Shown here in pieces: positions 1 through 1,183 of a stretch of 64,000 bases of DNA. How positions within the stretch are numbered: the stretch's first letter is position 1; each line of letters starts with the position of its first letter. A model generated the notes under the pieces. That model was given only the letters and a program-made list of their open reading frames with translations. It had not been told where the DNA came from and did not search any database. Source of the DNA: Candidatus Marsarchaeota archaeon (lineage in GTDB: Archaea; Micrarchaeota; Micrarchaeia; Micrarchaeales; Micrarchaeaceae); assembly GCA_023473665.1 (NCBI GenBank), contig JAMCYM010000002.1, positions 1 through 64,000 of the forward strand. The letters are read 5' to 3'. The position numbers were made by a program, and so were the translations under genes.

Positions 1-215
1 GCCTGGGGAGTACGGCCGCAAGGTTGAAACTTAAAGCAATTGGCGGGGGAGCACACAAGGGGTGGATGCTGCGGTTTAATTGAATCCAACGTCGGAAATA
101 TTACCAGAAGCGACGGCAGGGTGAAGGCCAGACTGAAGATCTTGCCTGACGAGCCGAGAGGTAGTGCATGGCGACCGTCAGCTCGTGGTGTGAACTGTCC
201 GGTTAAGTCCGGTAA

Positions 216-732
216 GTTGACAGAGTGATGCTATGACACAACGATTGAGGTTGACCCCAAACACAAGCTACATGCTTGGAATGTATGTGCAGAGCACTCG
301 TGAACGCATTGGCGTCACGTCAAAGAGAGACGAAGTTATAGAGAAGTTCGTGAAACTCTCGATGGATGAGTTCGGCGTAGAGCCGAACAAGATCCTTTTC
401 GAGGAGCAGGCGCAGGGAACTAGCGCGTTCTTCTACAACTCGAAGCTCAAGAGGCGTTTCGACAAGGCGCTGGAAAGAAGGGATAAGCTCTTCAAGTACG
501 GGAACGAGTACTCAGGCAGCTACATAGCCGGCATGTTCGATGTCAGCGGCGGCAAGGACAGGTACGGCCTGTATTTTGGCAGGCTTGAGCCCGTCGACGC
601 ACTGATACTCGAGAAGCTTGGGATACACACAACAGGCAGTGCGCGCGTGCGGGTCGCAAACCCGAGCGCGCTCGTGACGCTTATACGCGGTCACAGCCTA
701 ATCGTTGCGAGCATTATTCGTTGACCCGGTAA
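216..732 (+). other. Intron in the 16S rRNA gene
   Basis: The 16S sequence breaks after 'ggttaagtccggtaa' near 215 and resumes at 'cgagcgagacc' near 733, a block that is continuous in other 16S genes (about E. coli 1094-1106). The string ccggtaa occurs at both junctions (209-215 and 726-732), so the exact splice points can slide by up to 7 bases; the intron is 517 nt in any register. Almost all of it is the LAGLIDADG gene at 233-724. The self-complementary CCGG at each junction could pair in a bulge-helix-bulge-like structure, the substrate of archaeal splicing endonuclease, but this fold was not computed. Confidence 0.9.
233..724 (+). CDS. LAGLIDADG homing endonuclease-like protein in the 16S intron
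   Basis: A 163-aa protein filling the 16S intron, the usual location for archaeal LAGLIDADG homing enzymes, which cut intronless alleles and spread the intron. Two LAGLIDADG-type helices are visible: YMLGMYVQS at residues 13-21 and YIAGMFDVSGG at 97-107. In both, the position of the second, metal-binding acid appears to be Ser (QST and VSG), so endonuclease activity may be lost or changed. The length matches small double-motif enzymes. The ATG at 233 is preceded by agagtgatgct, matching the GTGAT ribosome-binding motif used elsewhere in this window. The stop lies just before the 3' splice region. The family call is firm; activity is doubtful. Confidence 0.85.
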   Translation: MTQRLRLTPNTSYMLGMYVQSTRERIGVTSKRDEVIEKFVKLSMDEFGVEPNKILFEEQAQGTSAFFYNSKLKRRFDKALERRDKLFKYGNEYSGSYIAGMFDVSGGKDRYGLYFGRLEPVDALILEKLGIHTTGSARVRVANPSALVTLIRGHSLIVASIIR

Positions 733-1183
733 CGAGCGAGACCTTCGCCAACAGTTGCAACCTTGGCAGAGATGCCGGGGGCACTCTGTTGGGACCGCCT
801 CTGTTTAAAGAGGAGGAAGGAGAGGGCGACGATACGTCAGTATGCTCTGAATCTTCTGGGCTACACGCGGCATACAAAGGTCGGTACAATGAGATGCAAC
901 GTCGAAAGGCGAAGCAAATCCCCTAAAACCGGCCTAAGTTCGGATTGAGGGTTGAAACTCACCCTCATGAAGCTGGAATCCCTAGTAATCGCATGTCACT
1001 ATCGTGCGGTGAATCTGTCCCCGCTCCTTGCACACACCGCCTACCAACTCACCCAAGTGGGGTCTTAGTGAGGCAGCGACTCTGTCGCTTTCGAACTAAG
1101 GTTCCGCGAGGAGGGGTAAGGTATAACAAGGTATCCGTAGGGGAACCTGCGGATAGATCACCTCAAAAATAATGTGTGCAAAA

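What the first reader, a model, noticed from the sequence alone, without database searches (positions are those of the whole stretch)
1038..1124. Compensatory rewriting of the top of 16S helix 44, next to the decoding site
Aligned to E. coli, positions 1404-1406 read T-A-C (1042-1044) instead of C-G-T, and 1495-1497 read G-T-A (1121-1123) instead of T-C-G. All three layers change together: C1404-G1497 becomes U-A, G1405-C1496 becomes A-U, and the near-universal U1406-U1495 pair becomes C-G. A1408, A1492, A1493, G1494 and U1498 are kept. Paired change argues against sequencing error and suggests altered decoding-site dynamics and aminoglycoside binding. It would also defeat common 16S PCR primers.
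Basis: partly seen in the sequence, partly recalled or inferred. Interest (0 to 1): 0.75.

Follow-up and report, generated by a model that had tools for sequence, protein, structure and literature searches.

The report
Rewritten base pairs at ribosome decoding site
In one order of tiny archaea (Micrarchaeota), three stacked base pairs beside the ribosome's decoding site, one of them described in the literature as the same in nearly all life, have been swapped many times but always kept as matched pairs, so the exact letters there matter less than textbooks suggest.

Summary
The window starts with the 3' part of the genome's only detected archaeal 16S gene. E. coli positions 1404-1406 read U-A-C (window 1042-1044) and 1495-1497 read G-U-A (1121-1123), giving U-A, A-U and C-G for C-G, G-C and U.U. 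It is neither unique nor a sequencing error: a sister genome, a complete genome of cultured Ca. Micrarchaeum (A_DKE) and the rest of an 11-genome clade share it. Of 98 genomes of the order with readable h44, 88 have a Watson-Crick pair at 1406-1495 and 10 keep U.U. The layers did not change together: states CGU, UGU, UGC, CGC, UAC and CGG are all present, needing about 12, 6 and 5 double changes on a 16S tree, with no mismatched intermediate. Other Micrarchaeota sampled keep CGU/UCG (29 of 30). A GTDB scan finds C1406-G1495 elsewhere only in scattered lineages. A 2011 paper calls U1406.U1495 universal except in trypanosome mitochondria, so this is a real, apparently unreported exception. Most likely it is pairing-constrained compensatory drift in a lineage whose decoding centre is remodelled in several places. 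Predicted resistance to gentamicin-type drugs is inference.

The parts
1..1166 (+). 3' part of the 16S rRNA gene (E. coli ~876 to the 3' end), interrupted by an insert; the 5' part ends contig C1, which overlaps this contig by 127 bases
   Evidence: cmscan RF01959 569 bits; other piece on C1; identical 127-base contig ends
1042..1044 (+). 5' strand of the top of h44: U1404 A1405 C1406 (ancestral C-G-U)
1121..1123 (+). 3' strand of the top of h44: G1495 U1496 A1497 (ancestral U-C-G)
1042..1123 (+). helix 44 as folded; 1042-1045 pairs with 1120-1123 as a continuous stem
   Evidence: strand folding
1045..1046 (+). C1407 and A1408, kept
1118..1120 (+). A1492 A1493 G1494, kept
37..37 (+). C at E. 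coli 917 (G in class relatives and bacteria); paired with G18, also swapped, in the central pseudoknot; fixed across the order
83..92 (+). E. coli 963-972 (h31): G-C replaced by A (83) - U (92), nearly fixed across the order
208..727 (+). about 518-base insert (boundaries +-3 bases) in 16S near E. coli 1092-1097, with a 163-aa ORF (233-724); probable archaeal rRNA intron
   Evidence: cmscan insert of 518; ORF; no Pfam match

Best explanation
This is a genuine, functional 16S rRNA in which the three base-pair layers just above the decoding site (1404-1497, 1405-1496, 1406-1495) have evolved by repeated double (compensatory) substitutions within the order Micrarchaeales. Shown: the pairing is kept without a single exception, the identity is not, U.U is replaced by a Watson-Crick pair in most of the order, and the changes happened in separate steps on the tree. 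Inferred mechanism: in this lineage the constraint that elsewhere holds C-G/G-C/U.U fixed (contacts by factors, modification enzymes or switching of this stem) is relaxed or re-balanced, while the stem must still form to hold A1492/A1493 and the P/A-site mRNA path. Converting U.U to C-G stiffens the stem and then permits the weaker A-U at 1405. Inferred consequence: ribosomes that still decode normally but bind 4,6-disubstituted aminoglycosides (gentamicin, tobramycin) poorly.
For: 98 order rows: 1404-1497 U-A 79 / C-G 19; 1405-1496 G-C 78 / A-U 20; 1406-1495 C-G 87 / G-C 1 / U.U 10; no mismatched row; outside the order 29 of 30 CGU/UCG, 1 UGU/UCA. Parsimony on an ML 16S tree with the six trait columns masked: 12, 6 and 5 changes; 11, 5 and 4 on a stricter 97-row tree; UAC/GUA needs 5-6 changes, 3-4 forced by well-supported branches. 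The window lies in an 11-row all-UAC/GUA clade (98/100) with A_DKE. GTDB scan: 112 of 112 readable real hits fully paired. A1405-U1496 (20 rows) occurs only with C1406-G1495, never in 40 U.U rows; a nearest-neighbour model gives +0.3 (CGU/UCG), -3.0 (UAC/GUA), -5.0 (UGC/GCA), -5.8 (CGC/GCG) kcal/mol. Viability of C1406-G1495: engineered M. smegmatis (PMC3101183).
Against: No functional data. The 1405-on-1406 dependence has too few independent contrasts to test. The nearest-neighbour numbers are for an isolated mini-hairpin, not a ribosome. What relaxed the constraint was not identified: changes in H69 and uS12 do not track the h44 state. Deep branches of family f2 are weakly resolved, so the number of U.U to C-G events could be 1 to 3.
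Confidence: 0.85

Rival explanations
1. Adaptive resistance: the C-G pair was selected because it blocks aminoglycoside-type antibiotics (4,6-disubstituted, hygromycin B) in the habitat.
For: Engineered 1406C-1495G in M. smegmatis is highly resistant to gentamicin and tobramycin but sensitive to paromomycin and neomycin (PMC3101183). U1406C and C1496U are listed as hygromycin B resistance mutations (PMC8004914).
Against: The recurrent flips at 1404-1497 and 1405-1496 and reversals to G-C or C-G are not explained by drug escape; many other near-universal sites far from the drug pocket were also swapped in the same order. No exposure data.
Confidence: 0.1
2. Coordinated re-engineering of the decoding centre: h44, 530 loop, central pseudoknot, uS12 and H69 co-evolved to a new decoding mechanism or fidelity setting.
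For: Order-wide G527A, G18-C917 and A963-U972; uS12 QPNSA loop reads QPHSG or QPSSG and PGVRY reads PG(M/L/I/W)KY in the order; H69 C1916.
Against: H69 C1916 and uS12 PHSG are already present in class relatives with normal h44; U.U members of the order carry the same uS12 changes. Timing is nested rather than coupled.
Confidence: 0.15
3. Artefact: assembly error, chimera, or a decaying 16S pseudogene.
For: The 16S is split over two contigs with a 127-base overlap, so the assembly graph branched inside the gene; an insert interrupts it.
Against: Only one 16S was found in the genome; the same six bases occur in a sister MAG (G253), a complete genome of cultured A_DKE (G262) and the rest of an 11-row clade; pairing and catalytic bases are intact.
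Confidence: 0.02

Closest known systems
Trypanosomatid mitochondrial small-subunit rRNA A site (1406C-1495G; PMC3101183)
   Same: U.U at 1406-1495 replaced by C-G; A-U at 1409-1491 as in Trypanosoma; viable naturally
   Different: Organelle rRNA, independent origin; the paper calls it unique; Micrarchaeales also flip 1404-1497 and 1405-1496 and one member has G-C at 1406-1495
Engineered M. smegmatis U1406C/U1495G ribosomes (PMC3101183, PMC3140962)
   Same: The same 1406-1495 C-G pair, tested in vivo: resistant to gentamicin/tobramycin, sensitive to paromomycin/neomycin
   Different: Bacterial context with C1404-G1497 and G1405-C1496 intact; the full UAC/GUA combination was not tested in these papers
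Other natural C1406-G1495 rRNAs found here (a non-Micrarchaeales Micrarchaeon, one Diapherotrites, Kaiserbacteria/Pacebacteria, Dojkabacteria, Christensenellaceae/Clostridia, bacterium YF1.bin83)
   Same: C1406-G1495 with full Watson-Crick neighbours
   Different: CGC/GCG, UGC/GCA or CAC/GUG; none has UAC/GUA
Canonical archaeal SSU rRNA (RF01959) and other Micrarchaeota
   Same: Same gene, same h44 architecture, same A1408/A1492/A1493/G1494/U1498
   Different: C-G, G-C, U.U at the three layers in 29 of 30 class rows

Membership tests
Archaeal small-subunit rRNA (RF01959) | Covariance-model match over the gathering score with the 3' domain intact | tested here: met
   569 bits against a cut-off of 50; 5' part 748 bits on C1
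Archaeal small-subunit rRNA (RF01959) | Decoding bases A1408, A1492, A1493, G1494, U1498 kept | tested here: met
   128 of 128 rows including the window
Canonical h44 top (C1404-G1497, G1405-C1496, U1406.U1495) | Sequence identity at the six positions | tested here: not met
   UAC/GUA in the window
Canonical h44 top (C1404-G1497, G1405-C1496, U1406.U1495) | Base pairing of the layers | tested here: met
   All pairs kept in all order rows and GTDB hits read; fold
Trypanosome-mitochondrion-type A site (C1406-G1495) | C-G at 1406-1495 with A1408 kept | tested here: met
   similarity of state, not of descent
Trypanosome-mitochondrion-type A site (C1406-G1495) | Resistance to 4,6-disubstituted aminoglycosides, sensitivity to paromomycin/neomycin | not testable with these tools
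   Known only for engineered M. smegmatis

The most novel reading that the evidence does not exclude
An entire archaeal order has done away with the 'universal' U1406.U1495 switch pair in most of its members and runs a stiffened, freely re-lettered h44 top as part of a wider re-engineering of its decoding centre (G527A, swapped central pseudoknot pair 18-917, altered uS12 loops, C1916 in H69), implying that conformational switching at U.U is not required for accurate decoding.
Probability: 0.2. Interest if true: 0.75.

Novelty: new variant of a known kind. Interest (0 to 1): 0.5.

Why it matters
The U1406.U1495 pair is described as universal across the three domains and is a core part of the aminoglycoside site. 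An order-wide natural exception, with dozens of species and a cultured member (Ca. Micrarchaeum A_DKE), provides a ready set of natural variants (CGU, UGU, UGC, CGC, UAC, CGG) for asking which features of the top of h44 decoding really needs: pairing, stability or identity. It may also explain part of any poor recovery of these archaea with primer 1492R.

Tried and rejected
Coupling with helix 69 of 23S (bridge B2a): a first pattern was badly written and found nothing; the corrected one shows C1916 in all but one of the listed matches across the phylum, whatever the h44 state, so it is not coupled. Coupling with uS12: the QPNSA to QPHSG change is shared with class relatives that keep CGU/UCG; two extraction scripts failed before this one worked. 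A statistical test that A1405-U1496 depends on C1406-G1495 has too few independent contrasts. A chance hit in an actinobacterial contig (L102) is not rRNA and was dropped. No held paper combined Micrarchaeota, 16S rRNA and helix 44; the search for '1406-1495' found only the trypanosome paper. Subscription literature and SILVA/CRW alignments were not available, so novelty is relative to the held library.

Full report
What is there. The window opens with the 3' part of an archaeal 16S gene (RF01959, 569 bits, window 1-1166). The 5' part ends another contig of the same genome; the two contig ends are identical over 127 bases, an assembly break inside one gene, and no other copy was found. An insert of about 518 bases carrying a 163-aa ORF interrupts it near E. 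coli 1092-1097.

Distribution. In 301 genomes of the phylum, the 5' triplet is C-G-U almost everywhere outside the window's order, while the order has U-G-C, C-G-C, U-G-U and U-A-C; the 3' triplets mirror them. After fetching the genes, 98 order rows gave complete sextets: 1404-1497 U-A 79, C-G 19; 1405-1496 G-C 78, A-U 20; 1406-1495 C-G 87, G-C 1, U.U 10. Not one row is mispaired apart from the ancestral U.U. Of 30 class relatives outside the order, 29 are CGU/UCG and one is UGU/UCA.

History. On a maximum-likelihood 16S tree built without the six trait columns, the three pairs need at least 12, 6 and 5 changes, or 11, 5 and 4 on a stricter set of 97 rows. UAC/GUA needs 5-6 changes, of which 3-4 are forced by well-supported branches. 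The window falls in a clade of 11 rows (98/100 support) that are all UAC/GUA, among them the sister genome G253 and the complete genome of the cultured Ca. Micrarchaeum sp. A_DKE (NZ_CP060530, G262). These independent assemblies rule out a local sequencing error. The layers therefore changed one at a time, not together. The usual path is CGU to UGU to UGC, then to UAC or back to CGC. Because basal branches of family f2 are poorly resolved, the number of U.U to C-G events is uncertain (1 to 3).

Rest of life. A scan of GTDB species genomes for C1406 and G1495 with conserved flanks (1404, 1405, 1496 and 1497 left free) gave 114 stretches. One could not be read with flanks in the script, one is not rRNA (L102), and the remaining 112 are all fully Watson-Crick: 92 Micrarchaeota (UGC/GCA 60, UAC/GUA 17, CGC/GCG 15) and 20 others: one Diapherotrites (CAC/GUG), one bacterium with UGC/GCA (YF1.bin83), and 18 with CGC/GCG titled Christensenellaceae, Clostridia, Bacillota, Kaiserbacteria, Pacebacteria, Patescibacteria, Dojkabacteria, and two whose titles (Prevotella, Alphaproteobacteria) look misassigned. 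One Micrarchaeon (L152, Guaymas) lacks the order's signature bases and so is a separate origin. The C-G pair has thus arisen several times, UAC/GUA only in Micrarchaeota. The published statement is that U1406.U1495 is conserved across the three domains and organelles, with trypanosome mitochondria the exception (PMC3101183); the present data contradict that.

Context in the ribosome. The order also carries other swaps at near-universal 16S positions: C18-G917 to G18-C917 in the central pseudoknot, G963-C972 to A-U, 341-348 and 137-226 inverted, and G527 to A in the 530 loop. Two partners of the decoding site are altered more widely: 23S C1916 in helix 69 and the uS12 loop QPNSA, which reads QPHSG or QPSSG (the best solved archaeal relatives whose alignments were shown all read QPNS). 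Since both occur in relatives with a normal h44, they are background, not direct partners.

How it most likely works. Shown: pairing is under strict selection, identity is not. Inferred: some identity constraint is relaxed in this lineage. A nearest-neighbour model of the four layers gives +0.3 kcal/mol for CGU/UCG, -3.0 for UAC/GUA, -5.0 for UGC/GCA and -5.8 for CGC/GCG; A-U at 1405 is seen only with C-G at 1406 (20 of 20) and never with U.U (0 of 40). This fits a stability budget in which the C-G pair makes room for weaker neighbours, but the dependence could not be tested statistically. Drug effects are predicted from engineered M. smegmatis ribosomes, where 1406C-1495G gives resistance to gentamicin and tobramycin but not to paromomycin or neomycin, and from U1406C and C1496U as hygromycin B resistance mutations.

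Primers. 1492R has 4 mismatches to the window (primer bases 4, 5, 6 and 17 from the 3' end), three of them from this change; 1391R and a 1406R-type primer have 3 on their 5' side. The claim that common primers would be defeated is fair for 1492R and overstated for 1391R.

Verdict. Observation confirmed; interpretation partly supported. It is a real, order-wide, recurrent compensatory variant of a site described as universal, not a peculiarity of this genome.

Noticed in passing
window 37; L001 (5' end of 16S): The central-pseudoknot pair C18-G917 is swapped to G18-C917 in every readable member of the order; U14 also reads C. It is a second rewriting of a near-universal 16S pair and puts a mismatch under archaeal probe ARCH915.
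   Followed up: partly
window 83 and 92: h31 pair 963-972 is A-U instead of G-C in nearly the whole order.
   Followed up: partly
L001 (16S h18 of this genome: GTGGCAGCCGCCACGG): G527 reads A across the order while C522 is kept, leaving a C.A opposition in the 530 loop; C518 reads G here and in many class relatives.
   Followed up: partly
G000:C1:91231-91262 (23S, L277): Helix 69 loop reads UAACUCUGA (C at 1916) in nearly all Micrarchaeota matched, and in one Diapherotrites (L157).
   Followed up: partly
L280 (uS12 of this genome): The conserved uS12 loop QPNSA reads QPHSG (QPSSG in two) in Micrarchaeota, and PGVRY reads PG(M/L/I/W)KY in the order; the solved archaeal relatives aligned here all read QPNS.
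   Followed up: partly
window 208-727: About 518-base insert in 16S with a 163-aa ORF (233-724) without a Pfam match; a stretch YIAGMFDVSGG resembles a LAGLIDADG motif. Several relatives have similarly sized inserts, some near E. coli 1391.
   Followed up: partly
window 1-127: The first 127 bases are identical to the end of contig C1, the mark of a k=127 assembly-graph break inside the 16S gene.
   Followed up: yes
L201, L205, L211, L219, L220, L223, L261: C1400 (the P-site wobble-contact base) reads U in several genera of the order.
   Followed up: no
L175, L165: Kaiserbacteria-type 16S genes have C1406-G1495 and an unusual 3' end (GGAAUGUAA...) without an obvious GGAUCACCUCC anti-Shine-Dalgarno tail.
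   Followed up: no
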